64,000 bases of DNA from Hevea brasiliensis (Eukaryota > Streptophyta > Magnoliopsida > Malpighiales > Euphorbiaceae): assembly GCF_030052815.1 (NCBI RefSeq), contig NC_079503.1, forward strand, positions 56,462,735 through 56,526,734. The letters run 5' to 3'. Below the pieces are notes generated by a model. The model had not been told where the DNA came from and did not search any database. It saw only the letters and a list, made by a program, of their open reading frames with translations. Within the stretch, counting starts at the first letter, position 1. Each line of letters begins with the position of its first letter. Made by a program: the position numbers and the translations under genes. Below are positions 3,064 through 55,050 of the stretch, in pieces.

Positions 3064-3078
3064 CTATAAGCTTAGAGA

Positions 3079-30161: not shown

Positions 30162-31746
30162 TGTAATGCCCTCACTTTAGATAGTCTGTATATTCTACTA
30201 TTCCGATGACTAACGTCTATTCGAACAACCAGGATGTCTGGAACTACACTCGAACTAGAGTGAGGAGGTATAAATTGACTGAATAAATACCAAGAAAAAA
30301 AATGAAGAAAAAACAAAAGAAATGAATTGTAAATGAGTAAAACGAGCTGAAGTAATGGTGATGGGTGAGTATACTGGGAAGCCACTGTGAAGACAGTTGT
30401 CGATCCCAAACCTACAAAGAACCCTATAAAATAAATATTTTGGATTAAATTGAAGGTTTAATGAGGATTAAATGACATTAAAAATGCCAAAGAAAATTCA
30501 AGAAATTAGCCAATCAGTAAAAGGGAAATTATAACCCAGCAAGCATAACGAAGGGCATTTTGGTAATTTCAATCTCATAGTTGAATTTCGACCTAAATGT
30601 CAATTAAAATGAGAAAGATTAAAATGCATAAAATAAATTAAAATCATGAAAAATGCAATAGAAATGGAAAAAGAAAAGCAAAGAAAAAGAAATAAAAATT
30701 TTGATGTAAGCATGACGTCATGCTAACCTAAGCATGATGTTAATATTACATCATTAAAATTTTATGTAAATTTGCTATGGATATATATATATAAGCATAA
30801 GATGACAAATTGTAATTAAACAAAAGTCTTCTTCTTCTTCCTTATCACCCATGGCTGAACCACCATCCCAAAAGAGCTCCCACCATTTTTTATTTCCAAA
30901 GCTTGATTTCCTCCATTTTTCACCCCAAATCTCATACTTGCTTTCACTAAAAATTTATTCCACACCTTAAGGAAGATAGTGGTTGCTAAGGAAGTGAAGG
31001 AAATTGGAGTTTTAGCAAAGTGAAGAAGTGGTCCATAAGGTTAGTGCACTACCCTTACTTCCTTTCTTCTCTAAGTATGGTAAACATGCTAAATGATTTG
31101 AAAATTTGCATGAAATTAAAGAAATATGTGACACCCCTTACCCGACTATAGTGTAGCCGAGCAAGTTATGCTACTCAGTGTGCCGAGCACTCTATTTTAT
31201 CTTAATTCATTTTTATTCTTCCTTTTGAATATAACTTGTGAAATATAATTTATTTAAGCCATTTATCGAAATTATAATTTATTTGAGGTTCCGAGAATTT
31301 TATAGAAAATTCGGCAAAGTATCGGCTAAAAATGGAGAAAACAGTTCTTCAGAACTTGTGAAAAACACTTCCTATGATCATATTCAATCATCTCATCACT
31401 CTCAAACTTCAATATCAAAATCTCAACATTTTTCACCATTCATTTCTCAATTTCAATTTTCAATCATTCATCTCATTTGATAGTCATGTAACAATCACGG
31501 ATCAATATTCACTTTTCCATTTACAAACACAAATTTGCATTATTTACATGAAAATCAAAATACATTACATAATGAAAATCAAAATTTATTACAGAATGCC
31601 AAAATGACACCTAGTGTCCTACCAATGCACTGCAGAAGTTGAGGTGACACGGACACTATGCAGAACTGTGAACGGCCTTACCCAATCTGTGGTCTACTGG
31701 GCCCTCTGTCCAAATCTTCGCACTCACGCGTTGCAAAAGCGACGCG

Positions 31747-31763
31747 CTAAGCATAAAGCTTAG
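31747..31763 (-). other. Shared LTR hairpin, copy in array E
   Basis: The plus strand reads CTAAGC, loop ATAAA, GCTTAG, then TGGTGCC. It lies 620 bp from the LTR's 3' end. Identical copies occur in the other five LTRs (for example 35709-35725). Confidence 0.85.
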
Positions 31764-32168
31764 TGGTGCCAATAATACTAGAAAATACAATATGCAAATA
31801 AAAATAATAATTTCCTTGCTATTGTGTTCATAAGAAATGAATAATTACTAACTTATTGTGTAGTCGAGGCTAATCATGTTTCATGATATTAACTTCTTCA
31901 TGCATTTCGTTAATTATTTTCTTCATGATATTGAGCTTCTTTGTATTTTTGTAATCATTCCTGATACTTAATTTTCGTATTTTCTTTAATAATCAGTTCA
32001 ATCACAGTTATACTTTTCCATGCCCAAGTAACCTATACTGGACGACTGGACTGGATAACGGGTCTTTGGCACTGGACACCGCGGTGCCTCGGGCCGTCAT
32101 ACCATGGGACGCAGAACGTCAACCACGTATGCAGTCAGTATGGCTAAAAAGCCATGATATCACATAAT

Positions 32169-32242
32169 CGGGCATAAAAGCCATGAATACGGGCATAAAG
32201 CCATGAATACGGGCATAAAGCCGTGAATACAGGCATAAAGCC
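32169..32242 (-). repeat. Four 20-bp direct repeats in the array E LTR
   Basis: GGGCATAAAGCCATGAATAC-type units repeat four times with small changes. Each has GGC and GCC flanking ATAAA. Equivalent blocks occur in every array LTR. GGCTTTATGCC-type motifs recur in LTRs A, B and D, so the motif predates the families. Confidence 0.8.
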
Positions 32243-32837
32243 TTTCGCAGTACTGCTAAAACAATACCCTATTGGCATGCCAACCTATCCAAACCAATCA
32301 CATTAGGCCTACTAGGGCATTTTGCACTTTTAAGTTTCACAATTTTTTGAATTTCAAGTTTTTATGTCACTATTCATTTCATTAGTCAACTAAAATGTTG
32401 ACTTTTGCATAAACAATAGGTACATTGGTTTTAGTACTCCCAACATACCACATTTTGTATTCAAAACTTGTTGGTTTTGGTCACTTTCTCAAAGTTTAGG
32501 TCATTTTGGCAAAATTGCCAATTTTTGGTTTTGGTGTCACTATTCACCTCATTGGTCAACAAAAATGTTGACTTTTGGATAGAAAATAGGTGTATTGGTT
32601 TTAACACCCCAAACATACCACATTTTGTATTTAAAACTTGTTGGTATTGGTTGCCAATACCATTTCTAAGCTTAATGCTAATTGAACAAAATTTTTAGAT
32701 TTGGTGCTTCATCTTCTTGTTACATTTGTTATTTTTACAGTGGGAATTTGAGGAAATGGTAAACATGAAAGTTGTTTCTTATTTTGTCTAGTTTAATTTC
32801 ATTTTTTGAATCACTCCATTTGGAGTTTTGTAGCTCA

Positions 32838-33240
32838 AGTTATGGCCAAAATAAGTTTACTGTTCACGTGCACTGTTCATGCTGCACTTTTGGGTTTTGG
32901 CAGATTTTGGTCCAAATTTGGTCAGTAATTTGATCAAGTTAAGTTCATAATTTGGCCTAACTTTCTTCATATGAAATGTTCTACTATGCCTTAGGTTTTC
33001 ATCGGTTCAAGAATCGCCTAAATCCGAGTTTTCTAGAGAGAGTTATAGCCATCCAAACATTACTGCTCAAATGAAAATTCTGGAAATCTCAGTACAGTAA
33101 ACTTCACTTTGCTCAATGATTTGATTAGGTTAATTGCATAATTTAGATTGGTGTCCTTCATGAAAGTTGTTTGTCTATATCTTATCTTATTGCTGTAAAA
33201 ATTTCAGGTCAATTGACCATATCTACAGTGAGTTATGGCC
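32838..33240 (-). repeat. ~200-bp modules in the array E LTR
   Basis: AGTTATGGCC or AGTTATAGCC occurs at 32838, 33041 and 33231 (203 and 190 bp apart). It is the complement of the CATAACT starts in LTRs B and D. The same spacing recurs in each array unit. Confidence 0.65.
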
Positions 33241-34736
33241 AAATGAACAGTTACTGTTCATTTGGTCATTTCTGCAGGGGCTGTTTGCAGGGTATCCGGA
33301 TTGGGGCCAAGTTTTGGTCCTCTTGCTTTGGTCTTTTGGGCATGGTTTCTTCAGCAAAAATGTGCCATTATAAGCCTAGTTTCATGTCCAATTGGACAAA
33401 CACCAATTGGACCTACACAGCCAAGGATATGGCAGTCCAAACATGCTGGACTCACAGCCTCATTTCTGCTGTCTCTTGGTAGCCTCCCCATTTCAGTTTA
33501 CCATGCATTAGCTCACTTCAAATTATGATTTACTTGCCTTAAATGGTCACTAATTGACCATTAGAATGTCCACTAATCATTCCATAAGCCAAATCAAATT
33601 TTCACTCCTAAACCCTAGCTAAATTTCAAAGTTTTCACCAATTACCTTAGTTAGCACACCAATTCATCATACATATATATATATATACCTTAAACATCAT
33701 CTTTAGTCCACTCTAAGTCCATCAAAAACACTTAATCTTGTTCCTCCCTAGGGCTGCCAAAATTCATTGTATACATACACATAAATTCCATTCATTTTAT
33801 TCACAAATTCTTGCTTATTTTAGGTCTCTAATCATGGAAAGAGAAAGATGTATACATAATAGGCACTAACCTCACTTGTGACCTAACTTGGACTTGCCCA
33901 ACTTCAAAATTTCCTCAAATTTCTGCTGCCTTATGCTTCCTCAAGGTTTAGGGATAATTTTTTGTGAAGGAAGTTTAGGGTTTTGGGGTGGAGAGCTTAG
34001 GGAAAATCAAGCTTTAAACAAGAGCTTTCATGGAGTTTTTTTCTTCTCTCTCTCTCTCAACGTTTCTGCAGCCCAAAGATGAAGATGGCTGTCCACTTTT
34101 TCCAATTTTTATCTCCTTTTATTCATGTTTAAGTAATTTATAATGATGTGTCAAAATTTGGTTGGGTGAAAATATTTTAATTGCATCATGCTCATGTCAT
34201 AAATATGACTTTTATTTCATTTTCTTTTCTTTTCTCTTATACTAACTTCAAATTAATTTTTCATCAACATTAATTCATATTTTATGTTATAATAATTATT
34301 TACTCAACTGGACAAGTCGGCCAAAAATCGTCTCTGAAGGCGAAATGACAAAAATGCCCTCCGTTTGGCTTAACGGGTCAAAATTGTCTGTACCGATTGA
34401 AAAATTTTTCTAAATATTTTCTTGGCATTCTAATGCCATAGGAACCTCAATGACCCTTCTCTGGTGTCCCAAAAATTATTTTATGAATTTTTCCTGTCTA
34501 GGGCTCCTCGTTAGAAACCGCAACTTACCTCTCGTTACCCATCACTTGGGCACCTACTGCTTAACTTGGTTGTATTTTATTTCTAAAATTTTTCCTAAAT
34601 TTTTCTTATTAATATTTGAGTTAATTATGGTCCCTCACTTTGATTTAAATATTTTTCCGGACGTTCTAGCTGTCCAGACCGACACTGGTCACCAGAACAG
34701 TAGACTGTACGGAGTTGCTACCGGGAGGGTGTTACA

Positions 34737-35087
34737 ACTCTTCCCCTCTAATTTAAATTTCGTCCTCGAAATTTACCCAGTGTAAATAGCCGAGGAGCTA
34801 CTACCTCTTTATTTCTTCACCTTTCCGTATTATCCTACTTCACTTTCTCCTTAGTCTCAATCCTATCCTTAAACAGTTATGTACTCATCCTTTTTCATCT
34901 TAAATACGGTCTCCTTCTCATCTCCATTCGCTATCTCATTGTCTCTTCACTCTCTTATTCCATACCTTAACCTAAAATAAACAGGAAATACAGATCTGCA
35001 ATAGTGTCACCTCGACTCTTATGAATGCAATGCATGATATGCAACCTATCTAGGTCCAGAAACGCCTAAACCGTGCTCTGATACCAA
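34737..35087 (-). other. Array E, interior 1 (351 bp)
   Basis: On the minus strand it starts with the primer site TTGGTATCAGAGC at the right edge. About 270 bp of non-coding sequence follow. It ends with AAATTTCGAGGACGAAATTT and a purine tract (AGAGGGGAAGAGT) directly before the LTR start TGTAACACCC. No gag or pol trace. Confidence 0.9.
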
Positions 35088-38000
35088 CCCGACTACAGTG
35101 TAGCCGAGCAAGTTATGCCACTCAGTGTGCCGAGCACTCTATTTTATCTTAATTCATTTTTATTCTTCCTTTTGAATATAACTTGTGAAATATAATTTAT
35201 TTAAGCCATTTATCGAAATTATAATTTATTTGAGATTCCGAGAATTTTATAGAAAATCCGGCAAAGTACCGGCTAAAAATGGAGAAACAGCTTTTTCTAA
35301 CTCGTGAAAAACACTTCCTATGATCATATTCAATCATCTCATCACTCTCAAACTTCAATATCAAAATCTCAACATTTTTCACCATTCATTTCTCAATTTC
35401 AATTTTCAATCATTCATCTCATTTGATAGTCATGTAACAATCACAGATCAATATTCACTTTTCCATTTACAAACACAAATTTGCATTATTTACATGAAAA
35501 TCAAAATACATTACATAAGTTTCATTACATATGAGAAAATCAAAATTTATTACAGAATGCCAAAATGACACCTAGTGTCCTACCAATGCACTGTAGAAGT
35601 TGAGGTGACACGGACACTATGCAGAACTGTGAACGGCCTTACCCAATCTGTGGTCTACTGGGCCCTCTGTCCAAATCTTCAGTACCTACGCGTTGCAAAA
35701 GCGACGCGCTAAGCATAAAGCTTAGTGGTGCCAATAATACTAGAAAATACAATATGCAAATAAAAATAATAATTTCCTTGCTATTGTGTTCATAAGAAAT
35801 GAATAATTACTAACTTATTGTGTAGTCGAGGCTAATCATGTTTCATGATATTAACTTCTTCATGCATTTCATTAATTATTTTCTTCATGATATTGAGCTT
35901 CTTTGTATTTTTGTAATCATTCCTGATACTTAATTTTCGTATTTTCTTTAATAATCAGTTCAATCACAGTTATACTTTTCCATGCCCAAGTAACCTATAC
36001 TGGACGACTGGACTGGATAACGGGTCTTTGGCACTGGACACCGCGGTGCCTCGGGCCGTCATACCATGGGACGCAGAACGTCAACCACGTATGCGGTATG
36101 GCTAAAAAGCCATGATATCACATAATCGGGCATAAAAGCCATGAATACGGGCATAAAGCCATGAATACGGGCATAAAGCCGTGAATACAGGCATAAAGCC
36201 TTTCGCAGTACTGCTAAAACAATATCCTATTGGCATGCCAACCTATCCAAACCAATCACATTAGGCCTACTAGGGCATTTTGCACTTTTAAGTTTCACAA
36301 TTTTTTGAATTTCAAGTTTTTATGTCACTATTCATTTCATTAGTCAACTAAAATGTTGACTTTTGCATAAACAATAGGTACATTGGTTTTAGTACTCCCA
36401 ACATACCGCATTTTGTATTCAAAACTTGTTGGTTTTGGTCACTTTCTCAAAGTTTAGGTCATTTTGGCAAAATTGCCAATTTTTGGTTTTGGTGTCACTA
36501 TTCACCTCATTGGTCAACAAAAATGTTGACTTTTGGATAGAAAATAGGTGTATTGGTTTTAACACCCCAAACATACCACATTTTGTATTTAAAACTTGTT
36601 GGTATTGGTTGCCAATACCATCTCTAAGCTTAATGCTAATTGAACAAAATTTTTAGATTTGGTGCTTCATCTTCTTATTACATTTGTTATTTTTACAGTG
36701 GGAATTTGAGGAAATGGTAAACATGAAAGTTGTTTCTTATTTTGTCTAGTTTAATTTCCTTTTTTGAATCACTCCATTTGGAGTTTTATAGCTCAAGTTA
36801 TGGCCAAAATAAGTTTACTGTTCACGTGCACTGTTCATGCTGCACTTTTGGGTTTTGGCAGATTTTGGTCCAACTTTGGTCAGTATTTTGATCAAGTTAA
36901 GTTCATAATTTGGCCTAACTTTCTTCATATGAAATGTTCTACTATGCCTTAGGTTTTCATCGGTTCAAGAATCGCCTAAATCTGAGTTTTCTAGAGAGAG
37001 TTATAGCCATCCAAACATTACTGCTCAAATGAAAATTCTGGAAATCTCAGTACAGTAAACTTCACTTTGCTCAATGATTTGATTAGGTTAATTGCATAAT
37101 TTAGATTGGTGTCCTTCATGAAAGTTGTTTGTCTATATCTTATCTTGTTGCTGTAAAAATTTCAGGTCAATTGACCATATCTACAGTGAGTTATGGCCAA
37201 ATGAACAGTTACTGTTCATTTGGTCATTTCTGCAGGGGCTGTTTGCAGGGTATCCGGATTGGGGCCAAGTTTTGGTCCTCTTGCTTTGGTCTTTTGAGCA
37301 TGGTTTCTTCAGCAAAAATGTGCCATTATAAGCCTAGTTTCATGTCCAATTGGACAAACACCAATTGGACCTACACAGCCAAGGATATGGCAGTCCAAAC
37401 ATGCTGGACTCACAGCCTCATTTCTGCTGTCTCTTGGTAGCCTCCCCATTTCAGTTTACCATGCATTAGCTCACTTCAAATTATGATTTACTTGCCTTAA
37501 ATGGTCACTAATTGACCATTAGAATGTCCACTAATCATTCCATAAGCCAAATCAAATTTTCACTCCTAAACCCTAGCTAAATTTCAAAGTTTTCACCAAT
37601 TACCTTAGTTAGCACACCAATTCATCATACATATATATATATACCTTAAACATCATCTTTAGTCCACTCTAAGTCCATCAAAAACACTTAATCTTGTTCC
37701 TCCCTAGGGCTGCCAAAATTCATTGTATACATACACATAAATTCCATTCATTTTATTCACAAATTCTTGCTTATTTTAGGTCTCTAATCATGGAAAGAGA
37801 AAGATGTATACATAATAGGCACTAACCTCACTTGTGACCTAACTTGGACTTGCCCAACTTCAAAATTTCCTCAAATTTCTGCTGCCTTATGCTTCCTCAA
37901 GGTTTAGGGATAATTTTTTGTGAAGGAAGTTTAGGGTTTTGGGGTGGAGAGCTTAGGGAAAATCAAGCTTTAAACAAGAGCTTTCATGGAGTTTTTTTCT

Positions 38001-38697
38001 TCTCTCTCTCTCTCTCAACGTTTCTGCAGCCCAAAGATGAAGATGGCTGTCCACTTTTTCCAATTTTTATCTCCTTTTATTCATGTTTAAGTAATTTATA
38101 ATGATGTGTCAAAATTTGGTTGGGTGAAAATATTTTAATTGCATCATGCTCATGTCATAAATATGACTTTTATTTCATTTTCTTTTCTTTTCTCTTATAC
38201 TAACTTCAAATTAATTTTTCATCAACATTAATTCATATTTTATGTTATAATAATTATTTACTCAACTGGACAAGTCGGCCAAAAATTGTCTCTGAAGGCG
38301 AAATGACAAAAATGCCCTCCGTTTGGCTTAACGGGTCAAAATTGTCTGTACCGATTGAAAAATTTTTCTAAATATTTTATTGGCATTCTAATGCCATAGG
38401 AACCTCAATGACCCTTCTCTGGTGTCCCAAAAATTATTTTATGAATTTTTTCCCGGGTCTAGGGCTCCTCGTTGCGAGAACCGCAACTTACCTCTGGTTA
38501 CCCATCGCTTGGGCACCGGCTCGATAAACTTGCTTGTATTTTATTTCTATAATTTTTCCTAAATTTTTCTTATTAATATTTGAGTTAATTATGGTCCCTC
38601 ACTTTGATTTAAATATTTTTCCGGACGTTCTAGCTGTCTGCATCGACATCGTCACCAAAACAAGAGATCAGACGAGTTGCTACGGGAGGGTGTTACA
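35088..38697 (-). repeat. Array E, LTR 2 (type b)
   Basis: 3,610 bp, starting CCCGACTACAG directly against the primer site and lacking the terminal 14 bases. Type-b markers shared only with LTR 4: ACATACCGCATT near 36405, GTTTTATAGCTC near 36784, A at 37297, and TTGTTGCTG near 37146. Confidence 0.92.
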
Positions 38698-39048
38698 ACT
38701 CTTCCCCTCTAATTTAAATTTCGTCCTCGAAATTTACCCAGTGTAAATAGCCGAGGAGCTACTACCTCTTTATTTCTTCACCTTTCCGTATTATCCTACT
38801 TCACTTTCTCCTTAGTCTCAATCCTATCCTTAAACAGTTATGTACTCATCCTTTTTCATCTTAAATACGGTCTCCTTCTCATCTCCATTCGCTATCTCAT
38901 TGTCTCTTCACTCTCTTATTCCATACCTTAACCTAAAATAAACAGGAAATACAGATCTGCAATAGTGTCACCTCGACTCTTATGAATGCAATGCATGATA
39001 TGCAACCTATCTAGGTCCAGAAACGCCTAAACCGTGCTCTGATACCAA
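38698..39048 (-). other. Array E, interior 2 (351 bp)
   Basis: Primer site and polypurine tract only; essentially identical to interior 1. Confidence 0.9.
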
Positions 39049-42000
39049 CCCGACTACAGTGTAGCCGAGCAAGTTATGCCACTCAGTGTGCCGAGCACTC
39101 TATTTTATCTTAATTCATTTTTATTCTTCCTTTTGAATATAACTTGTGAAATATAATTTATTTAAGCCATTTATCGAAATTATAATTTATTTGAGATTCC
39201 GAGAATTTTATAGAAAATCCGGCAAAGTACCGGCTAAAAATGGAGAAAACAGTTCTTGAACTCGTGAAAAACACTTCCTATGATCATATTCAATCATCTC
39301 ATCACTCTCAAACTTCAATATCAAAATCTCAACATTTTTCACCATTCATTTCTCAATTTCAATTTTCAATCATTCATCTCATTTGATAGTCATGTAACAA
39401 TCACAGATCAATATTCACTTTTCCATTTACAAACACAAATTTGCATTATTTACATGAAAATCAAAATACATTACATAAGTTTCATTACATATGAGAAAAT
39501 CAAAATTTATTACAGAATGCCAAAATGACACCTAGTGTCCTACCAATGCACTGCAGAAGTTGAGGTGACACGGACACTATTAAGAACTGTGTACGGCCTT
39601 TCCCAATCTGTGGTCTACTGGGCCCTCTGTCCAAATCTTTCGCACCTACGCGTTGCAAAAGCGACGCGCTAAGCATAAAGCTTAGTGGTGCCAATAATAC
39701 TAGAAAATACAATATGCAAATAAAAATAATAATTTCCTTGCTATTGTGTTCATAAGAAATGAATAATTACTAACTTATTGTGTAGTCGAGGCTAATCATG
39801 TTTCATGATATTAACTTCTTCATGCATTTCGTTAATTATTTTCTTCATGATATTGAGCTTCTTTGTATTTTTGTAATCATTCCTGATACTTAATTTTCGT
39901 ATTTTCTTTAATAATCAGTTCAATCACAGTTATACTTTTCCATGCCCAAGTAACCTATACTGGACGACTGGACTGGATAACGGGTCTTTGGCATCGACAC
40001 CGCGGTGCCTCGGTCATCATACCATGGGACGCAGAACGCCAACCACGTGATGCGATCGGTATGGCTAAAAAGCCATGATATCACATAATCGGGCATAAAA
40101 GCCATGAATACGGGCATAAAGCCATGAATACGGGCATAAAGCCGTGAATACAGCATAAAGCCTTCGCGATCGCTAAAACAATACCCTATTGGCATGCCAA
40201 CCTATCCAAACCAATCACATTAGGCCTACTAGGCATTTTGCACTTTTAAGGTTCACAATTTTTGAATTTCAAGTTTTTATGTCACTATTCATTTCATTAG
40301 TCAACTAAAATGTTGACTTTTGCATAAACAATAGGTACATTGGTTTTAGTACTCCCAACATACCACATTTTGTATTCAAAACTTGTTGGTTTTGGTCACT
40401 TTCTCAAAGTTTAGGTCATTTTGGCAAAATTGCCAATTTTTGATTTTGGTGTCACTATTCACCTCATTGGTCAACAAAAATGTTGACTTTTGGATAGAAA
40501 ATAGGTGTATTGGTTTTAACACCCCAACCCTACCACATTTTGTATTTAAAACTTGTTGGTATTGGTTGCCAATACCATTTCTAAGCTTAATGCTAATTGA
40601 ACAAAATTTTTAGATTTGGTGCTTCATCTTTACTGTTACATTTGTTATTTTTACAGTGGGAATTTGAGGAAATGGTAAACATGAAAGTTGTTTCTTATTT
40701 TGTCTAGTTTAATTTCCTTTTTTGAATCACTCCATTTGGAGTTTTGTAGCTCAAGTTATGGCCAAAATAAGTTTACTGTTCACGTGCACTGTTCATGCTG
40801 CACTTTTGGGTTTTGGCAGATTTTGGTCCAACTTTGGTCAGTAATTTGATCAAGTTAAGTTCATAATTTGGCCTAACTTTCTTCATATGAAATGTTCTAC
40901 TATGCCTTAGGTTTTCATCGGTTCAAGAATCGCCTAAATCTGAGTTTTCTAGAGAGAGTTATAGCCATCCAAACATTACTGCTCAAATGAAAATTCTGGA
41001 AATCTCAGTACAGTAAACTTCACTTTGCTCAATGATTTGATTAGGTTAATTGCATAATTTAGATTGGTGTCCTTCATCAAAGTTGTTTGTCTATATCTTA
41101 TCTTATTGCTGTAAAAATTTCAGGTCAATTGACCATATCTACAGTGAGTTATGGCTAAATGAACAGTTACTGTTCATTTGGTCATTTCTGCAGGGGCTGT
41201 TTGCAGGGTATCCGGATTGGGGGCCAAGTTTTGGTCCTCTTGCTTTGGTCTTTTGGGCATGGTTTCTTCAGCAAAAATGTGCCATTATAAGCCTAGTTTC
41301 ATGTCCAATTGGACAAACACCAATTGGACCTACACAGCCAAGGATATGGCAGTCCAAACAAGCTGGACTCACAGCCTCATTTCTCATTGTCTCTTGGTAG
41401 CCTTCCCATTTCAGTTTACCATGCATTAGCTCACTTCAAATTATGATTTACTTGCCTTAAATGGTCACTAATTGACCATTAGAATGTCCACTAATCATTC
41501 CATAAGCCAAATCAAATTTTCACTCCTAAACCCTAGCTAAATTTCAAAGTTTTCACCAATTACCTTAGTTAGCACACCAATTTATCATACATATATATAT
41601 ATATACCTTAAACATCATCTTTAGTCCACTCTAAGTCCATCAAAAACACTTAATCTTGTTCCTCCCTAGGGCTGCCAAAATTCATTGTATACATACACAT
41701 AAATTCCATTCATTTTATTCACAAATTCTTGCTTATTTTAGGTCTCTAATCATGGAAAGAGAAAGATGTATACATAATAGGCACTAACCTCACTTGTGAC
41801 CTAACTTGACTTGCCCAACTTCAAAATTTCCTCAAATTTCTGCTGCCTTATGCTTCCTCAAGGTTTAGGGATAATTTTTTGTGAAGGAAGTTTAGGGTTT
41901 TGGGGTGGAGAGCTTAGGGAAAATCAAGCTTTAAACAAGAGCTTTCATGGAGTTTTTTTCTTCTCTCTCTCTCTCAACGTTTCTGCAGCCCAAAGATGAA

Positions 42001-42652: not shown

Positions 42653-43001
42653 ACTCTTCCTCTAATTTAAATTTCGTCCTCGAAATTTACCCAGTGTAAA
42701 TAGCCGAGGAGCTACTACCTCTTTATTTCTTCACCTTTCCGTATTATCCTACTTCACTTTCTCCTTAGTCTCAATCCTATCCTTAAACAGTTATGTACTC
42801 ATCCTTTTTCATCTTAAATACGGTCTCCTTCTCATCTCCATTCGCTATCTCATTGTCTCTTCACTCTCTTATTCCATACCTTAACATAAAATAAACAGGA
42901 AATACAGATCTGCAATAGTGACACCTCGACTCTTATGAATGCAATGCATGATATGCAACCTATCTAGGTCCAGAAACGCCTAAACCGTGCTCTGATACCA
43001 A
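42653..43001 (-). other. Array E, interior 3 (349 bp)
   Basis: As the other interiors, two bases shorter because of C-run losses near 42659, with private changes (TTAACATAAAATAA, GTGACACCTCG). Confidence 0.9.
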
Positions 43002-46000
43002 CCCGACTACAGTGTAGCCGAGCAAGTTATGCCACTCAGTGTGCCGAGCACTCTATTTTATCTTAATTCATTTTTATTCTTCCTTTTGAATATAACTTGT
43101 GAAATATAATTTATTTAAGCCATTTATCGAAATTATAATTTATTTGAGATTCCGAGAATTTTATAGAAAATCCGGCAAAGTACCGGCTAAAAATGGAGAA
43201 AACAGTTTTTCGGAACCTGTGAAAAACACTTCCTATGATCATATTCAATCATCTCATCACTCTCAAACTTCAATATCAAAATCTCAACATTTTTCACCAT
43301 TCATTTCTCAATTTCAATTTTCAATCATTCATCTCATTTGATAGTCATGTAACAATCACAGATCAATATTCACTTTTCCATTTACAAACACAAATTTGCA
43401 TTATTTACATGAAAATCAAAATACATTACATAAGTTTCATTACATATGAGAAAATCAAAATTTATTACAGAATGCCAAAATGACACCTAGTGTCCTACCA
43501 ATGCACTGTAGAAGTTGAGGTGACACGGACACTATGCAGAACTGTGAACGGCCTTACCCAATCTGTGGTCTACTGGGCCCTCTGTCCAAATCTTGATCGC
43601 ACTCACGCTGCAAAGCGACGCGCTAAGCATAAAGCTTAGTGGTGCCAATAATACTAGAAAATACAATATGCAAATAAAAATAATAATTTCCTTGCTATTG
43701 TGTTCATAAGAAATGAATAATTACTAACTTATTGTGTAGTCGAGGCTAATCATGTTTCATGATATTAACTTCTTCATGCATTTCGTTAATTATTTTCTTC
43801 ATGATATTGAGCTTCTTTGTATTTTTGTAATCATTCCTGATACTTAATTTTCGTATTTTCTTTAATAATCAGTTCAATCACAGTTATACTTTTCCATGCC
43901 CAAGTAACCTATCTTGGACGATCGGATCGATAACGGGTCTTTGCATCGACACCGCGGTGCCTCGGGCCGTCATACCATGGGACGCAGAACGTCAACCACG
44001 TATGCAGTCAGTATGGCTAAAAAGCCATGATATCACATAATCGGGCATAAAAGCCATGAATACGGGCATAAAGCCATGAATACGGGCATAAAGCCGTGAA
44101 TACAGGCATAAAGCCTTTCGCAGTACTGCTAAAACAATATCCTATTGGCATGCCAACCTATCCAAACCAATCACATTAGGCCTACTAGGGCATTTTGCAC
44201 TTTTAAGTTTCACAATTTTTTGAATTTCAAGTTTTTATGTCACTATTCATTTCATTAGTCAACTAAAATGTTGACTTTTGCATAAACAATAGGTACATTG
44301 GTTTTAGTACTCCCAACATACCGCATTTTGTATTCAAAACTTGTTGGTTTTGGTCACTTTCTCAAAGTTTAGGTCATTTTGGCAAAATTGCCAATTTTTG
44401 GTTTTGGTGTCACTATTCACCTCATTGGTCAACAAAAATGTTGACTTTTGGATAGAAAATAGGTGTATTGGTTTTAACACCCCAAACATACCACATTTTG
44501 TATTTAAAACTTGTTGGTATTGGTTGCCAATACCATCTCTAAGCTTAATGCTAATTGAACAAAATTTTTAGATTTGGTGCTTCATCTTTACTGTTACATT
44601 TGTTATTTTTACAGTGGGAATTTGAGGAAATGGTAAACATGAAAGTTGTTTCTTATTTTGTCTAGTTTAATTTCCTTTTTTGAATCACTCCATTTGGAGT
44701 TTTATAGCTCAAGTTATGGCCAAAATAAGTTTACTGTTCACGTGCACTGTTCATGCTGCACTTTTGGGTTTTGGCAGATTTTGGTCCAACTTTGGTCAGT
44801 AATTTGATCAAGTTAAGTTCATAATTTGGCCTAACTTTCTTCATATGAAATGTTCTACTATGCCTTAGGTTTTCATCGGTTCAAGAATCGCCTAAATCTG
44901 AGTTTTCTAGAGAGAGTTATAGCCATCCAAACATTACTGCTCAAATGAAAATTCTGGAAATCTCAGTACAGTAAACTTCACTTTGCTCAATGATTTGATT
45001 AGGTTAATTGCATAATTTAGATTGGTGTCCTTCATGAAAGTTGTTTTTCTATATCTTATCTTGTTGCTGTAAAAATTTCAGGTCAATTGACCATATCTAC
45101 AGTGAGTTATGGCCAAATGAACAGTTACTGTTCATTTGGTCATTTCTGCAGGGGCTGTTTGCAGGGTATCCGGATTGGGGCCAAGTTTTGGTCCTCTTGC
45201 TTTGGTCTTTTGAGCATGGTTTCTTCAGCAAAAATGTGCCATTATAAGCCTAGTTTCATGTCCAATTGGACAAACACCAATTGGACCTACACAGCCAAGG
45301 ATATGGCAGTCCAAACATGCTGGACTCACAGCCTCATTTCTGCTGTCTCTTGGTAGCCTCCCCATTTCAGTTTACCATGCATTAGCTCACTTCAAATTAT
45401 GATTTACTTGCCTTAAATGGTCACTAATTGACCATTAGAATGTCCACTAATCATTCCATAAGCCAAATCAAATTTTCACTCCTAAACCCTAGCTAAATTT
45501 CAAAGTTTTCACCAATTACCTTAGTTAGCACACCAATTCATCGTACATATATATATATACCTTAAACATCATCTTTAGTCCACTCTAAGTCCATCAAAAA
45601 CACTTAATCTTGTTCCTCCCTAGGGCTGCCAAAATTCATTGTATACATACACATAAATTCCATTCATTTTATTCACAAATTCTTGCTTATTTTAGGTCTC
45701 TAATCATGGAAAGAGAAAGATGTATACATAATAGGCACTAACCTCACTTGTGACCTAACTTGGACTTGCCCAACTTCAAAATTTCCTCAAATTTCTGCTG
45801 CCTTATGCTTCCTCAAGGTTTAGGGATAATTTTTTGTGAAGGAAGTTTAGGGTTTTGGGGTGGAGAGCTTAGGGAAAATCAAGCTTTAAACAAGAGCTTT
45901 CATGGAGTTTTTTTCTTCTCTCTCTCTCTCTCAACGTTTCTGCAGCCCAAAGATGAAGATGGCTGTCCACTTTTTCCAATTTTTATCTCCTTTTATTCAT

Positions 46001-46613
46001 GTTTAAGTAATTTATAATGATGTGTCAAAATTTGGTTGGGTGAAAATATTTTAATTGCATCATGCTCATGTCATAAATATGACTTTTATTTCATTTTCTT
46101 TTCTTTTCTCTTATACTAACTTCAAATTAATTTTTCATCAACATTAATTCATATTTTATGTTATAATAATTATTTACTCAACTGGACAAGTCGGCCAAAA
46201 ATCGTCTCTGAAGGCGAAATGACAAAAATGCCCTCCGTTTGGCTTAACGGGTCAAAATTGTCTGTACCGATTGAAAAATTTTTCTAAATATTTTCTTGGC
46301 ATTCTAATGCCATAGGAACCTCAATGACCCTTCTCTGGTGTCCCAAAAATTATTTTATGAATTTTTTCCCGGGTCTAGGGCTCCTCGTTGCGAGAACCGC
46401 AACTTACCTCTGGTTACCCATCGCTTGGGCACCGGCTCGTTTAACTTGGTTGTATTTTATTTCTAAAATTTTTCCTAAATTTTTCTTATTAATATTTGAG
46501 TTAATTATGGTCCCTCACTTTGATTTAAATATTTTTCCGGACGTTCTAGCCGCCCGCATCGACATCGTCACCGAGCAAGAGATCAGCGGAGTTGCTACCG
46601 GGAGGGTGTTACA
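43002..46613 (-). repeat. Array E, LTR 4 (type b)
   Basis: 3,612 bp. It carries the type-b markers of LTR 2, including A at 45213, plus a private TTCATCGTACAT near 45537 and GTTGTTTTTCTA near 45041. Lacks the 14 terminal bases. Confidence 0.92.
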
Positions 46614-46964
46614 ACTCTTCCCCTCTAATTTAAATTTCGTCCTCGAAATTTACCCAGTGTAAATAGCCGAGGAGCTACTACCTCTTTATTTCTTCACCTT
46701 TCCGTATTATCCTACTTCACTTTCTCCTTAGTCTCAATCCTATCCTTAAACAGTTATGTACTCATCCTTTTTCATCTTAAATACGGTCTCCTTCTCATCT
46801 CCATTCGCTATCTCATTGTCTCTTCACTCTCTTATTCCATACCTTAACCTAAAATAAACAGGAAATACAGATCTGCAATAGTGTCACCTCGACTCTTATG
46901 AATGCAATGCATGATATGCAACCTATCTAGGTCCAGAAACGCCTAAACCGTGCTCTGATACCAA
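46614..46964 (-). other. Array E, interior 4 (351 bp)
   Basis: Primer site and polypurine tract only; essentially identical to interior 1. Confidence 0.9.
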
Positions 46965-49900
46965 CCCGACTACAGTGTAGCCGAGCAAGTTATGCCACTC
47001 AGTGTGCCGAGCACTCTATTTTATCTTAATTCATTTTTATTCTTCCTTTTGAATATAACTTGTGAAATATAATTTATTTAAGCCATTTATCGAAATTATA
47101 ATTTATTTGAGATTCCGAGAATTTTATAGAAAATCCGGCAAAGTACCGGCTAAAAATGGAGAAAACAGTTCTTCGGAACCTGTGAAAAACACTTCCTATG
47201 ATCATATTCAATCATCTCATCACTCTCAAACTTCAATATCAAAATCTCAACATTTTTCACCATTCATTTCTCAATTTCAATTTTCAATCATTCATCTCAT
47301 TTGATAGTCATGTAACAATCACAGATCAATATTCACTTTTCCATTTACAAACACAAATTTGCATTATTTACATGAAAATCAAAATACATTACATAAGTTT
47401 CATTACATATGAGAAAATCAAAATTTATTACAGAATGCCAAAATGACACCTAGTGTCCTACCAATGCACTGCAGAAGTTGAGGTGACACGGACACTATGC
47501 AGAACTGTGAACGGCCTTACCCAATCTGTGGTCTACTGGGCCCTCTGTCCAAATCTTCAGTACCTACGCGTTGCAAAAGCGACGCGCTAAGCATAAAGCT
47601 TAGTGGTGCCAATAATACTAGAAAATACAATATGCAAATAAAAATAATAATTTCCTTGCTATTGTGTTCATAAGAAATGAATAATTACTAACTTATTGTG
47701 TAGTCGAGGCTAATCATGTTTCATGATATTAACTTCTTCATGCATTTCGTTAATTATTTTCTTCATGATATTGAGCTTCTTTGTATTTTTGTAATCATTC
47801 CTGATACTTAATTTTCGTATTTTCTTTAATAATCAGTTCAATCACAGTTATACTTTTCCATGCCCAAGTAACCTATCTTTGACGACTAGATCGATAACGG
47901 GTCTTTGGCATCGACACCGCATGTTGCTCGGCCGTCATACCATGGGACGCAGAACGCCAACCACGTATGCGATCGGTATGGCTAAAAGCCATGATATCAC
48001 CTAATCTGGCATAAAAGCCATGAATACGGGCATATAGCCAGGAATACGGGCATAAAGCGTGAATACAGCATAAAGCCTTCGCGATCGCTAAAACAATACC
48101 CTATTGGCATGCCAACCTATCCAAACCAATCACATTAGGCCTACTAGGGCATTTTGCACTTTTAAGTTTCACAATTTTTTGAATTTCAAGTTTTTATGTC
48201 ACTATTCATTTCATTAGTCAACTAAAATGTTGACTTTTGCATAAACAATAGGTACATTGGTTTTAGTACTCCCAACATACCACATTTTGTATTCAAAACT
48301 TGTTGGTTTTGGTCACTTTCTCAAAGTTTAGGTCATTTTGGCAAAATTGCCAATTTTTGATTTTGGTGTCACTATTCACCTCATTGGTCAACAAAAATGT
48401 TGACTTTTGGATAGAAAATAGGTGTATTGGTTTTAACACCCCAAAAATACCACATTTTGTATTTAAAACTTGTTGGTATTGGTTGCCAATACCATTTCTA
48501 AGCTTAATGCTAATTGAACAAAATTTTTAGATTTGGTGCTTCATCTTTACTGTTACATTTGTTATTTTTACAGTGGGAATTTGAGGAAATGGTAAACATG
48601 AAAGTTGTTTCTTATTTTGTCTAGTTTAATTTCCTTTTTTGAATCACTCCATTTGGAGTTTTGTAGCTCAAGTTATGGCCAAAATAAGTTTACTGTTCAC
48701 GTGCACTGTTCATGCTGCACTTTTGGGTTTTGGCAGATTTTGGTCCAACTTTGGTCAGTAATTTGATCAAGTTAAGTTCATAATTTGGCCTAACTTTCTT
48801 CATATGAAATGTTCTACTATGCCTTAGGTTTTCATCGGTTCAAGAATCGCCTAAATCTGAGTTTTCTAGAGAGAGTTATAGCCATCCAAACATTACTGCT
48901 CAAATGAAAATTCTGGAAATCTCAGTACAGTAAACTTCACTTTGCTCAATGATTTGATTAGGTTAATTGCATAATTTAGATTGGTGTCCTTCATAAAAGT
49001 TGTTTGTCTATATCTTATCTTATTGCTGTAAAAATTTCAGGTCAATTGACCATATCTACAGTGAGTTATGGCTAAATGAACAGTTACTGTTCATTTGGTC
49101 ATTTCTGCAGGGGCTGTTTGCAGGGTATCCGGATTGGGGCCAAGTTTTGGTCCTCTTGCTTTGGTCTTTTGGGCATGGTTTCTTCAGCAAAAATGTGCCA
49201 TTATAAGCCTAGTTTCATGTCCAATTGGACAAACACCAATTGGACCTACACAGCCAAGGATATGGCAGTCCAAACAAGCTGGACTCACAGCCTCATTTCT
49301 GCTGTCTCTTGGTAGCCTCCCCATTTCAGTTTACCATGCATTAGCTCACTTCAAATTATGATTTACTTGCCTTAAATGGTCACTAATTGACCATTAGAAT
49401 GTCCACTAATCATTCCATAAGCCAAATCAAATTTTCACTCCTAAACCCTAGCTAAATTTCAAAGTTTTCACCAATTACCTTAGTTAGCACACCAATTTAT
49501 CATACATATATATATATATACCTTAAACATCATCTTTAGTCCACTCTAAGTCCATCAAAAACACTTAATCTTGTTCCTCCCTAGGGCTGCCAAAATTCAT
49601 TGTATACATACACATAAATTCCATTCATTTTATTCACAAATTCTTGCTTATTTTAGGTCTCTAATCATGGAAAGAGAAAGATGTATACATAATAGGCACT
49701 AACCTCACTTGTGACCTAACTTGGACTTGCCCAACTTCAAAATTTCCTCAAATTTCTGCTGCCTTATGCTTCCTCAAGGTTTAGGGATAATTTTTTGTGA
49801 AGGAAGTTTAGGGTTTTGGGGTGGAGAGCTTAGGGAAAATCAAGCTTTAAACAAGAGCTTTCATGGAGTTTTTTTCTTCTCTCTCTCTCTCTCAACGTTT

Positions 49901-50569
49901 CTGCAGCCCAAAGATGAAGATGGCTGTCCACTTTTTCCAATTTTTATCTCCTTTTATTCATGTTTAAGTAATTTATAATGATGTGTTAAAATTTGGTTGG
50001 GTGAAAATATTTTAATTGCATCATGCTCATGTCATAAATATGACTTTTATTTCATTTCCTTTTCTTTTCTCTTATACTAACTTCAAATTAATTTTTCATC
50101 AACATTAATTCATATTTTATGTTATAATAATTATTTACTCAACTGGACAAGTCGGCCAAAAATCGTCTCTGAAGGCGAAATGACAAAAATGCCCTCCGTT
50201 TGGCTTAACGGGTCAAAATTGTCTGTACCGATTGAAAAATTTTTCTAAATATTTTCTTGGCATTCTAATGCCATAGGAACCTCAATGACCCTTCTCTGGT
50301 GTCCCAAAAATTATTTTATGAATTTTTCCTGTCTAGGGCTCCTCGTTATGCGAACCGCAACTTACCTCTCGTTACCCATCGCTTGGGCACCTACTGCTTA
50401 ACTTGGTTGTATTTTATTTCTAAAATTTTTCCTAAATTTTTCTTATTAATATTTGAGTTAATTATGGTCCTCACTTTGATTTAAATATTTTTCCGGACGT
50501 TCTAGCCGTCTGCATCGACATCGTCACGAGCAGAGACTGCATTTGAGTTGCTACCGGGAGGGTGTTACA
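46965..50569 (-). repeat. Array E, LTR 5 (type c)
   Basis: 3,605 bp. It carries all type-c markers of LTR 3, including T at 49073. Lacks the 14 terminal bases. The 20-bp repeat block near 48005-48075 has several small losses. Confidence 0.92.
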
Positions 50570-50920
50570 ACTCTTCCCCTCTAATTTAAATTTCGTCCTC
50601 GAAATTTACCCAGTGTAAATAGCCGAGGAGCTACTACCTCTTTATTTCTTCACCTTTCCGTATTATCCTACTTCACTTTCTCCTTAGTCTCAATCCTATC
50701 CTTAAACAGTTATGTACTCATCCTTTTTCATCTTAAATACGGTCTCCTTCTCATCTCCATTCGCTATCTCATTGTCTCTTCACTCTCTTATTCCATACCT
50801 TAACCTAAAATAAACAGGAAATACAGATCTGCAATAGTGTCACCTCGACTCTTATGAATGCAATGCATGATATGCAACCTATCTAGGTCCAGAAACGCCT
50901 AAACCGTGCTCTGATACCAA
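50570..50920 (-). other. Array E, interior 5 (351 bp)
   Basis: Primer site and polypurine tract only; essentially identical to interior 1. Confidence 0.9.
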
Positions 50921-53900
50921 CCCGACTACAGTGTAGCCGAGCAAGTTATGCCACTCAGTGTGCCGAGCACTCTATTTTATCTTAATTCATTTTTATTCTT
51001 CCTTTTGAATATAACTTGTGAAATATAATTTATTTAAGCCATTTATCGAAATTATAATTTATTTGAGATTCCGAGAATTTTATAGAAAATCCGGCAGAGT
51101 ACCGGCTAAAAATAGAGAAAACCGTTCGGCGGAACCTGTGAAAAACACTTCCTATGATCATATTCAATCATCTCATCACTCTCAAACTTCAATATCAAAA
51201 TCTCAACATTTTTCACCATTCATTTCTCAATTTCAATTTTCAATCATTCATCTCATTTGATAGTCATGTAACAATCACAGATCAATATTCACTTTTCCAT
51301 TTACAAACACAAATTTGCATTATTTACATGAAAATCAAAATACATTACATAAGTTTCATTACATATGAGAAAATCAAAATTTATTACGAATGCCAAAATG
51401 ACACCTAGTGTCCTACCAATGCAATCGCAGGTTGAGGTGACACGGACACTATGCGTAATCGTGAACGCCTTACCCAACTGTGGTCTACGGGCCCTCTGTC
51501 CAAATCTTCGCACTACGCTGCAAAGCGACGCGCTAAGCATAAAGCTTAGTGGTGCCAATAATACTAGAAAATACAATATGCAAATAAAAATAATAATTTC
51601 CTTGCTATTGTGTTCATAAGAAATGAATAATTACTAACTTATTGTGTAGTCGAGGCTAATCATGTTTCATGATATTAACTTCTTCATGCATTTCGTTAAT
51701 TATTTTCTTCATGATATTGAGCTTCTTTGTATTTTTGTAATCATTCCTGATACTTAATTTTCGTATTTTCTTTAATAATCGGTTCAATCACGCTTATACT
51801 TTTCCATGCCCAAGTAACCTATCTTTGACGATCGATCGATAACGGGTCTTTGGCATCGACACCGCGTGCCTCGGGCCGTCATACCATGGGACGCAGAACG
51901 CCAACCACGTGATGCAAGATGGCTAAAAAGCCATGATATCACATAATCGGGCATAAAAGCCATGAATACGGGCATAAAGCCATGAATACGGGCATAAAGC
52001 CGTGAATACAGGCATAAAGCCTTTCGCAGTACTGCTAAAACAATACCCTATTGGCATGCCAACCTATCCAAACCAATCACATTAGGCCTACTAGGGCATT
52101 TTGCACTTTTAAGTTTCACAATTTTTTGAATTTCAAGTTTTTATGTCACTATTCATTTCATTAGTCAACTAAAATGTTGACTTTTGCATAAACAATAGGT
52201 ACATTGGTTTTAGTACTCCCAACATACCACATTTTGTATTCAAAACTTGTTGGTTTTGGTCACTTTCTCAAAGTTTAGGTCATTTTGGCAAAATTGCCAA
52301 TTTTTGGTTTTGGTGTCACTATTCACCTCATTGGTCAACAAAAATGTTGACTTTTGGATAGAAAATAGGTGTATTGGTTTTAACACCCCAAACATACCAC
52401 ATTTTGTATTTAAAACTTGTTGGTATTGGTTGCCAATACCATTTCTAAGCTTAATGCTAATTGAACAAAATTTTTAGATTTGGTGCTTCATCTTTACTGT
52501 TACATTTGTTATTTTTACAGTGGGAATTTGAGGAAATGGTAAACATGAAAGTTGTTTCTTATTTTGTCTAGTTTAATTTCATTTTTTGAATCACTCCATT
52601 TGGAGTTTTGTAGCTCAAGTTATGGCCAAAATAAGTTTACTGTTCACGTGCAATCGCTCATGCTGCACTTTTGGGTTTTGGCAGATTTTGGTCCAACTTT
52701 GGTCAGTAATTTGATCAAGTTAAGTTCATAATTTGGCCTAACTTTCTTCATATGAAATGTTCTACTATGCCTTAGGTTTTCATCGGTTCAAGAATCGCCT
52801 AAATCCGAGTTTTCTAGAGAGAGTTATAGCCATCCAAACATTACTGCTCAAATGAAAATTCTGGAAATCTCAGTACAGTAAACTTCACTTTGCTCAATGA
52901 TTTGATTAGGTTAATTGCATAATTTAGGTTGGTGTCCTTCATGAACGTTGTTTGTCTATATCTTATCTTATTGCTGTAAAAATTTCAGGTCAATTGACCA
53001 TATCTACAGTGAGTTATGGCCAAATGAACAGTTACTGTTCATTTGGTCATTTCTGCAGGGGCTGTTTGCAGGGTATCCGGATTGGGGCCAAGTTTTGGTC
53101 CTCTTGCTTTGGTCTTTTGGGAATGGTTTCTTCAGTAAAAATGTGCCATTATAAGCCTAGTTTCATGTCCAATTGGACAAACACCAATTGGACCTACACA
53201 GCCAAGGATATGGCAGTCCAAACATGCTGGACTCACAGCCTCATTTCTCATTGCCTCTTGGTAGCCTCCCCATTTCAGTTTACCATGCATTAGCTCACTT
53301 CAAATTATGATTTACTTGCCTTAAATGGTCACTAATTGACCATTAGAATGTCCACTAATCATTCCATAAGCCAAATCAAATTTTCACTCCTAAACCCTAG
53401 CTAAATTTCAAAGTTTTCACCAATTACCTTAGTTAGCACACCAATTCATCATACATATATATATATACCTTAAACATCATCTTTAGTCCACTCTAAGTCC
53501 ATCAAAAACACTTAATCTTGTTCCTCCCTAGGGCTGCCAAAATTCATTGTATACATACACATAAATTCCATTCATTTTATTCACAAATTCTTGCTTATTT
53601 TAGGTCTCTAATCATGGAAAGAGAAAGATGTATACATAATAGGCACTAACCTCACTTGTGACCTAACTTGGACTTGCCCAACTTCAAAATTTCCTCAAAT
53701 TTCTGCTGCCTTATGCTTCCTCAAGGTTAGGGATAATTTTTTGTGAAGGAAGTTTAGGGTTTTGGGGTGGAGAGCTTAGGGAAAATCAAGCTTTAAACAA
53801 GAGCTTTCATGGGTTTTTTTCTTCTCTTTCTCTCTCTCAACGTTTCTGCAGCCCAAAGATGAAGATGGCTGTCCACTTTTTCCAATTTTTATCTCCTTTT

Positions 53901-54521
53901 ATTCATGTTTAAGTAATTTATAATGATGTGTCAAAATTTGGTTGGGTGAAAATATTTTAATTGCATCATGCTCATGTCATAAATATGACTTTTATTTCAT
54001 TTTCTTTTCTTTTCTCTTATACTAACTTCAAATTAATTTTTCATCAACATTAATTCATATTTTATGTTATAATAATTATTTATTCAACTGGACAAGTCGG
54101 CCAAAAATCGTCTCTGAAGGCGAAATGACCAAAATGCCCTCCGTTTGGCTTAACGGGTCAAAATTGTCTGTACCGATTGAAAAATTTTTCTAAATATTTT
54201 CTTGGCATTCTAATGCCATAGGAACCTCAATGACCCTTTTCTGGTGTCCCAAAAATTATTTTATGAATTTTTTCCCTGGTCTAGGGCTCCTCATTGCGAG
54301 AACTGCAACTTACCTCTGGTTACCCATCGCTTGGGCACCGACTCGTTTAACTTGGTTGTATTTTATTTCTAAAATTTTCCTAAATTTTTCTTATTAATAT
54401 TTGAGTTAATTATGGTCCCTCACTTTGATTTAAATATTTTTCCGGACGTTCTAGCTGTCCAGACCGACACCGGTCACCGGAACAGTAGACTGTACGGAGT
54501 TGCTACCGGGAGGGTGTTACA
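50921..54521 (-). repeat. Array E, LTR 6 (outer 5' LTR, type a-like)
   Basis: 3,601 bp. It ends at 54521 against target AAATA. It shares with LTR 1 only the type-a markers (A at 52581, CCGAG near 52804). Private changes include GGGAATGG near 53120, TTATTCAACTGG near 54079 and GACCAAAATGCC near 54127. Lacks the 14 terminal bases at its interior side. Confidence 0.92.
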
Positions 54522-55050
54522 AAATAGATAAGTATAAGAGGGAAAGAAATTTTGGCAGCCTTGATAAATGAAAGTAGGTTGAGTTTAATTGGTATTAAAA
54601 CATGTTTATGGATGGTATTTGGTGTATATATATGATGGCTAAGATGATTGGCATGAGATTGTAAACTTTGGATTAGGGTTTTGACCTAATTATTGGGCCT
54701 TGTGTGTTATTACTTGAAATTGGCATGTTGAGATGATTTGTTGCCTATTAGAAGTGCCATGTATGCCAATTGAAGTATGGAAGTTGGCGGAAATTGAAAA
54801 TTTGGGAGTGTGTTTTCATGCAGGTTTTGGGACCAATGAGTCCAGTGTGAAAATTGAGTCATAACTAGAGTTGTGTTGCTCCAATTGGTATGAGGCTAAT
54901 TGCAGATGAAACTAGGGTCAAAATGCTCCAACTTTCATGAGGAAACCATGCCCAAAAACTGTCCACAACTTGACCTAATTACTGCTTGAATTCGGATGAC
55001 CATAACCTAAACCCAGAAAAATGACCAAACGAACCGTACATGCTCATTTG

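What the first reader, a model, noticed from the sequence alone, without database searches (positions are those of the whole stretch)
31127..54521. Six-LTR tandem retrotransposon array inserted as one unit
A 23.4-kb block of LTR-(interior-LTR) x5 is bracketed by a single perfect 5-bp target duplication (AAATA). There are no duplications or foreign DNA between units, and neighbours share LTRs. That rules out six separate insertions. It points to one LTR-interior-LTR insertion expanded in place by unequal crossing-over, or to integration of a multimeric cDNA. Tandem shared-LTR arrays are known, but six units of such a large-LTR, coding-free element is unusual.
Basis: partly seen in the sequence, partly recalled or inferred. 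Interest (0 to 1): 0.88.

Follow-up and report, generated by a model that had tools for sequence, protein, structure and literature searches.

The report
Tandem retrotransposon array grown in place
A plant jumping element that landed once appears to have been copied in place into a row of six shared end-repeats and five short cores by misaligned recombination, a known kind of structure that here keeps readable marks of how it grew.

Summary
Window 31127-54521 is an L6I5 array: six ~3.6-kb LTRs and five ~350-bp cores in one orientation, one perfect 5-bp duplication (AAATA) outside, nothing between units. It reads on the minus strand (PBS at five of five inner junctions, PPT intact in four of five cores) and lies inside a related solo LTR that keeps its own duplication, TGTGA.

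New here:
(1) All five inner LTR/PBS junctions lack the terminal 13 bp of U5; LTR1 keeps it, as do three related LTR ends. Reverse transcription copies both U5 ends from one template, so this scar most likely arose after insertion and was multiplied in place.
(2) LTR1-only changes cluster at its U5 end, LTR6-only changes weakly at its U3 end.
(3) LTR2 pairs with LTR4 and LTR3 with LTR5: a two-unit block was duplicated.

These favour expansion by unequal exchange over insertion of a multimeric cDNA. Most raw LTR divergence lies in CpG-centred clumps that look like consensus errors, so it is no clock. True copy number is untested (no reads; a false A-B duplication is possible), and the own-genome search did not complete. 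Tandem shared-LTR arrays, some larger, are already published.

The parts
31122..31126 (.). target-site duplication AAATA, left copy
31127..31139 (-). 13-bp U5 terminus (AAGGGGTGTCACA on the minus strand), present only in LTR1
   Evidence: the same type of terminus is in three related LTR ends at 29639, 57251 and 18798
31127..34736 (-). LTR1 (3' LTR of the array), 3610 bp, full U5 end
34737..35086 (-). core 1, 350 bp: PPT at 34737-34749, PBS at 35075-35086
35087..38697 (-). LTR2 (type A), 3611 bp, lacks 13-bp U5 end
38698..39047 (-). core 2, 350 bp, identical to core 1; PBS 39036-39047
39048..42652 (-). LTR3 (type B), 3605 bp, lacks 13-bp U5 end
42653..43000 (-). core 3, 348 bp; differs from the other four by a 2-bp deletion in the PPT and two single substitutions (core alignment columns 236 and 271); PBS 42989-43000
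43001..46613 (-). LTR4 (type A), 3613 bp, lacks 13-bp U5 end
46614..46963 (-). core 4, 350 bp, identical to core 1; PBS 46952-46963
46964..50569 (-). LTR5 (type B), 3606 bp, lacks 13-bp U5 end
50570..50919 (-). core 5, 350 bp, identical to core 1; PBS 50908-50919
50920..54521 (-). LTR6 (5' LTR of the array), 3602 bp, lacks 13-bp U5 end
54522..54526 (.). target-site duplication AAATA, right copy
30162..31126 (+). left part of the host solo LTR (related family, opposite orientation) into which the array inserted; own TSD TGTGA at 30157-30161
54527..57251 (+). right part of the host solo LTR; own TSD TGTGA at 57252-57256
15052..18798 (+). uninterrupted relative of the host LTR (3747 bp), used as a stand-in for the empty site; flanks CCTCC/CCTCT (four of five match)

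Best explanation
A single non-autonomous LTR retrotransposon (two ~3.6-kb LTRs, a ~350-bp core with PBS and PPT, no coding found) inserted once, in reverse orientation, into an older related solo LTR (shown by the TSDs and host continuity). Its 5' LTR then lost the last 13 bp of U5 beside the PBS (scar shown; timing inferred). Later, misaligned homologous recombination between the two LTRs, on sister chromatids or homologues, made LTR-core-LTR-core-LTR and grew the array; one later step duplicated a two-unit A-B block (pairing shown; process inferred). Every present core and 5'-type junction therefore descends in place from one junction. RNA from inner units would carry a U5 without the terminal CA, so the array should be unable to make normally integrating cDNA and can grow or shrink only by recombination (inferred).
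For: Scar: five of five inner junctions read GCTCTGATACCA|ACCCGACTA, and only the outer LTR1 has TGTGACACCCCTT before ACCCGACTA. All three related LTR ends that BLAST aligned to the start of the unit keep that type of terminus, so the short form looks derived (two of the three are one family). U5 of both LTRs is copied from one RNA U5 (established knowledge of LTR-element reverse transcription), so a normal cDNA would not carry a full 3' U5 and a scarred 5' U5. Edges: of 8 isolated LTR1-only substitutions, 6 lie in the first 449 of 3626 columns (binomial p=8e-5); of 7 LTR6-only, 3 lie in the last 440 (p=0.04) (limits chosen after looking). Of the five LTR6-only columns with related bases, three (2040, 3200, 3247) show the LTR6 base in both related sequences, so LTR1-5 share a derived U3 side there. 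Block: 9 of 13 informative isolated substitutions pair LTR2 with LTR4 (5) or LTR3 with LTR5 (4); none groups neighbouring inner LTRs alone. Cores: four of five identical.
Against: Isolated-site distances between LTR1, type A, type B and LTR6 are roughly equal (15-21), which a short multimer inserted at once would also give; edges would also diverge if a multimer landed and was then homogenised. A direct Fisher test of LTR1-only against LTR6-only changes, left against right, gives p=0.04 at two of five cuts and 0.13 at three. Of the other LTR6-only columns, the related sequences disagree at 3356, match neither base at 2249, and give nothing at 191 and 885; the alignments at 2040 and 3200 are poor, and those at 3200 and 3247 come from one family. 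At columns 23 and 46 they disagree on which state is old, and at the two LTR1-LTR6 shared sites polarity is unclear. Two of 13 informative sites (1009, 3435) conflict with the pairing. 174 of 217 variable columns were left out as clumped, gapped or multiallelic; with all 58 gap-free two-state informative columns, 23 support 2-4 or 3-5, and other groupings, including 4-5 (2) and 2-3 (1), occur.
Confidence: 0.78

Rival explanations
1. A multimeric cDNA (read-through of an array or one-LTR circle transcript, or template switching) integrated as a tandem with one target duplication, with little change since.
For: One TSD around the whole block; near-equal distances between LTR1, A, B and LTR6. PMC11899658 and PMC7215508 (discussion sections read) hold this route possible.
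Against: A template already carrying the 13-bp gap should give a 3' LTR with the gap, but LTR1 is full. If the gap came later it had to spread to all five junctions in place, which is expansion or turnover by recombination anyway. A-B-A-B pairing and reciprocal edges are not predicted. A cDNA whose 3' U5 came from a second, unscarred RNA is not excluded.
Confidence: 0.1
2. Not exclusive of the above: the array is real but shorter (for example LTR1-A-B-LTR6, three cores), and the second A-B block is an assembly duplication joining two haplotypes or mis-threaded reads.
For: LTR2/LTR4 differ at 6 and LTR3/LTR5 at 10 of 43 isolated sites, a level that two haplotypes could give; error-like clumps suggest poor consensus inside the array.
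Against: Each LTR copy has one or more private isolated changes, although one-base consensus errors could mimic some. Nothing here tests it with reads.
Confidence: 0.3
3. Several independent insertions, or recombination between two separate neighbouring insertions, made the array.
For: Multi-LTR Wukong elements have been put down to recombination between adjacent elements (PMC4528315, passages seen).
Against: Matching AAATA at both ends and no duplication or foreign DNA inside; the host LTR lost about nothing, 538 bp of flank against 539 bp in its relative between the matched blocks (my arithmetic coordinates); same scar at five of five junctions.
Confidence: 0.03

Closest known systems
Tandem LTR-retrotransposon structures in rice and other plants (PMC11899658; abstract, background, methods, results and discussion read)
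   Same: Alternating LTRs and internal regions sharing inner LTRs, with an outer TSD; one rice locus is also nested in another element.
   Different: The two loci described in detail have three LTRs, and the 28 curated rice loci all carry coding domains. The survey's minimum internal region was 500 bp, so a 350-bp core would be missed (my inference). The authors could not decide between complex insertion and recombination; here a junction scar favours recombination.
Tandemly arrayed TRIMs (maize Zma-SMART, Wukong) and Cassandra arrays (PMC4717578 and PMC4528315, passages; PMC7215508, passages and discussion)
   Same: Non-coding elements with short cores and shared LTRs; six and seven LTRs (Wukong), 13 LTRs (Cassandra PCR product), L5I4 (Zma-SMART); unequal crossing-over proposed for Wukong and Cassandra.
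   Different: Those are miniature elements; here the LTRs are ~3.6 kb. No Rfam family, hence no 5S match, reached its cut-off in the window, unlike Cassandra.
Structurally complex LTR elements in Arabidopsis (LTRtype, PMC5379124; passages seen)
   Same: Elements with three or more LTRs: ten with three LTRs and four with more.
   Different: Mostly three LTRs; no comparison of LTR size or of the junctions was seen in the passages.
Del/Tekay-type Ty3/gypsy families and LARDs of Hevea (PMC7353026, passages seen)
   Same: Hevea-like genome and long LTRs; Del/Tekay makes up 76.1% of RT domains in that paper.
   Different: No protein of the parent family was found here, so the lineage is not shown; LARD cores as I recall them are far longer.

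Membership tests
LTR retrotransposon (order) | two or more direct LTRs bounded by TG...CA | tested here: met
   TGTAACACCC...GGTGTCACA on the minus strand for LTR1; LTR2-6 lack the U5 CA end
LTR retrotransposon (order) | PBS next to the 5' LTR and PPT next to the 3' LTR | tested here: met
   TGGTATCAGAGC at five of five junctions; AGAGGGGAAGAGT in four of five cores, 2 bp shorter in core 3. That the PBS fits initiator tRNA-Met is recalled, not tested
LTR retrotransposon (order) | target-site duplication of 4-6 bp | tested here: met
   AAATA on both sides
Tandem shared-LTR array (LnIn-1) | alternating LTRs and cores, same orientation, one outer TSD, none inside | tested here: met
TRIM | no coding capacity and short core | tested here: met
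   core about 350 bp; no frame of 150 aa or more in the array; no Pfam match above cut-off in the 8 longest of 22 frames of unit 1, other units not scanned
TRIM | small LTRs and small total size | tested here: not met
   LTRs 3602-3613 bp; small size is named in the abstracts of PMC4528315 and PMC4717578 (listing)
LARD | long non-coding core between long LTRs | tested here: not met
   LTRs long, core only about 350 bp; the definition is recalled
Del/Tekay Ty3/gypsy lineage | reverse transcriptase phylogeny | not testable with these tools
   no coding sequence found in the array; own-genome search unanswered nine times

The most novel reading that the evidence does not exclude
A nascent satellite caught early: one retrotransposon insertion whose LTRs, through repeated unequal exchange, have begun to evolve as a tandem array with a two-unit higher-order repeat, divergent edges and near-identical cores, with a founder scar that records descent in place. 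(Lowered from 0.35 on checking: core 3 has two substitutions that I had first missed, so the homogenised stretch around the cores is less marked; see full report.)
Probability: 0.3. Interest if true: 0.55.

Novelty: new member of a known kind. Interest (0 to 1): 0.4.

Why it matters
How tandem LTR arrays arise, by inserting as multimers or by recombining after insertion, is stated as open in the 2025 survey of plant genomes (PMC11899658, discussion read). A junction scar present in all inner units but absent from the outer LTR is a sequence-only test that can be run on other arrays. The array also shows how a dead element could become satellite-like DNA, and it warns that LTR divergence in such arrays can be inflated by what look like consensus errors.

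Tried and rejected
LTR divergence as a clock was rejected. Raw LTR differences of 1.25-2.87% sit mostly in CpG-centred clumps: 153 of 217 variable columns lie within 5 bp of a CG, though such columns are 793 of 3626; 6 of 3625 circular shifts reach that. In the U3-end clump two related sequences resemble LTR1 and LTR6, while LTR2-5 are altered in four different ways with length changes. The young LTR pair 1-1490 / 6943-8432 shows 5 of 7 differences within 6 bp of a CG (223 of 1491 columns; p=0.001), three of them in one clump. The older pair 19420-21529 / 26539-28632 shows only a weak bias, 16 of 150 differences in 137 of 2110 columns (p=0.04), so the effect is not uniform across the window. 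I read the clumps as consensus errors at methylated cytosines; PMC9749173 (passages seen) names methylation as a likely cause of nanopore accuracy loss in plants, and one Hevea assembly used nanopore reads (PMC10106855, passages seen), but the window's origin and read type are not known. Against that reading, each core holds nine CG and shows no clump.

Core identity as proof of order was kept as weak support only. The corrected count is 2 observed against 7.7 expected, P about 0.02 by hand from the expectation, with limits chosen after looking. Polarity of the LTR1-LTR6 shared sites was tried and was unclear. The Copia RT frame did not help to place the species; the gag-like frame gave a 90% match named Hevea brasiliensis. 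Rfam found nothing at gathering cut-off in the window.

An earlier count gave host and paralog LTR starts as 30158 and 15050; one search corrects these to 30162 and 15052. One search also printed five bases at the old coordinates labelled as TSDs; the duplications reported here are read from its start and end lines.
Full report
WHAT IS THERE. The window is plant DNA, probably Hevea or a near relative: the 186-aa gag-like frame at 1808-2365 is 90% identical to a protein named Hevea brasiliensis, the best of four hits. Self-comparison shows a block of period about 3.95 kb spanning 31140-54522. Landmarks give six LTRs of 3602-3613 bp and five cores of 348-350 bp, all in one orientation. On the minus strand each LTR opens TGTAACACCC; the purine tract AGAGGGGAAGAGT lies just before it in four of five cores (core 3 has lost 2 bp of it); and TGGTATCAGAGC, the usual plant initiator-Met primer site (recalled), follows five of five inner LTR ends. 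AAATA flanks the whole block and nothing else separates units. In published notation this is L6I5.

WHERE IT SITS. The flanks belong to one older LTR of a related family lying in the opposite orientation: 30162-31126 plus 54527-57251 (3690 bp), with TGTGA at 30157-30161 and 57252-57256. Its relative at 15052-18798 is uninterrupted. BLAST matches 30162-30686 to 15052-15571 and 54625-57251 to 16111-18798. Between those matches lie 538 bp of host flank and 539 bp of relative (my arithmetic), so little or nothing was lost at the insertion point. Base-level alignment close to the junction is weak, 54-63% identity. The block is thus one foreign insertion.

THE JUNCTION SCAR. LTR1, at the outer end, has 13 bp (TGTGACACCCCTT on the plus strand) that five of five inner LTR/PBS junctions lack. 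All three related LTR ends that BLAST aligned to the unit start, at 29639, 57251 and 18798, keep that type of terminus; the last two are one family. The loss therefore looks derived. In reverse transcription both U5 ends of a cDNA are copied from the single U5 next to the primer site (established knowledge), so a cDNA would not normally be born with a full 3' U5 and scarred 5'-type junctions. The simplest order is: normal insertion, loss of 13 bp at the 5' LTR/PBS border, then multiplication of that junction in place. A neighbouring young element has 8 bp between LTR end and PBS, so bases of an unknown spacer may have gone too.

EDGES AND BLOCKS. To avoid error-like clumps I used 43 isolated two-state substitutions out of 217 variable columns (after setting aside the 13-bp end and a 15-bp LTR1 gap). 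LTR1-only changes cluster at its U5 end (6 of 8 in the first 449 columns, p=8e-5), LTR6-only changes less clearly at its U3 end (3 of 7 in the last 440, p=0.04); these limits were set after looking, and a direct Fisher comparison of the two sets reached p=0.04 at two of five cuts and 0.13 at the other three. Five of the seven LTR6-only columns have related bases: at 2040, 3200 and 3247 both related sequences carry the LTR6 base, at 3356 they disagree, at 2249 they match neither base; the alignments at 2040 and 3200 are poor. If inner LTRs are chimeras formed by exchange between the founder's two LTRs, they should take U5 from the 5' LTR and U3 from the 3' LTR; the patterns fit. Of 13 informative sites, five pair LTR2 with LTR4, four pair LTR3 with LTR5, two pair LTR1 with LTR6, and two (1009, 3435) conflict. 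In the wider set of 58 gap-free two-state informative columns, clumps included, 3-5 (14), 2-4 (9) and 1-6 (7) lead, with smaller counts for thirteen other groupings. The order is therefore read as LTR1-A-B-A-B-LTR6: a two-unit block was duplicated. Related sequences support the shared bases as derived at 2133 (five of five) and 3120 (two of two) for B, and at 1722 (three of four) and 2082 (three of three, poorly aligned) for A. Four of five cores are identical; core 3 has a 2-bp deletion and two substitutions. The U5-side 555 columns of LTR2-5 hold no isolated variant, and with the cores the count is 2 against 7.7 expected (P about 0.02 by hand, limits set after looking).

WHAT IS NOT RELIABLE. 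Raw LTR distances of 1.25-2.87% come mostly from clumps next to CG, changed in several ways with length shifts; in the U3-end clump the terminal LTRs agree better with related sequences than the inner ones do. I take these as consensus errors, by inference. The clump-free cores, with nine CG each, and the weak bias of the older LTR pair are points against. No age is given. Copy number depends on the assembly; an artificial second A-B block cannot be excluded, because LTR2/LTR4 and LTR3/LTR5 differ at only 6 and 10 isolated sites.

MECHANISM AND STANDING. Best reading: one insertion, a post-insertion scar, then unequal exchange between LTRs, including one two-unit duplication. With U5 lacking its end, inner units should not yield integrating cDNA (inference), so the array would live only by recombination. 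Tandem shared-LTR arrays are known and common in plants (PMC11899658, main sections read): six and seven LTRs in Wukong (PMC4528315, passages), 13 in a Cassandra PCR product (PMC7215508, passages), L5I4 in maize TRIMs (PMC4717578, passages), more than three LTRs in four Arabidopsis elements (PMC5379124, passages). What this one adds is size (3.6-kb LTRs around a 350-bp core) and internal evidence on a question the 2025 survey left open. The searches listed no paper that, from title, abstract start or the passages I read, uses a shared junction scar this way; they cover open-licence papers only, most listed papers were not opened, and only one search used junction and primer-site terms.

Noticed in passing
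1-8432: A young related element, perhaps cut by the window start: repeats 1-1490 and 6943-8432 are 99.5% identical, with a primer-site-like TGGTATAAGAGC at 1495 and a gag-like zinc-knuckle frame at 1808-2365.
   Followed up: partly
19420-28632: Direct repeats 19420-21529 and 26539-28632 (92.9%) around a Copia-type reverse transcriptase frame on the minus strand (22018-22791), with a primer-site-like motif at 26525: probably an older Copia element.
   Followed up: partly
15052-18798 and 30162-57251: Two solo LTRs of one long-LTR family (flanks CCTCC/CCTCT and TGTGA/TGTGA), one interrupted by the array; a further inverted piece lies at 61012-62094.
   Followed up: yes
LTR copies 31127-54521, LTR alignment columns 519-625, 927-1030, 1136-1145, 3390-3465, 3574-3614: CpG-centred clumps of copy-specific changes, some exchanging ATCG with ACTGG, probably consensus errors at methylated sites; they could mislead LTR dating in this assembly.
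   Followed up: partly
35087-35641 and the matching U5-side stretch of LTR3-5, with the cores: The U5-side 555 alignment columns of LTR2-5 hold no isolated variant, and four of five cores are identical, while the rest of the LTR varies; gene conversion near the core is one possible cause, chance another.
   Followed up: partly
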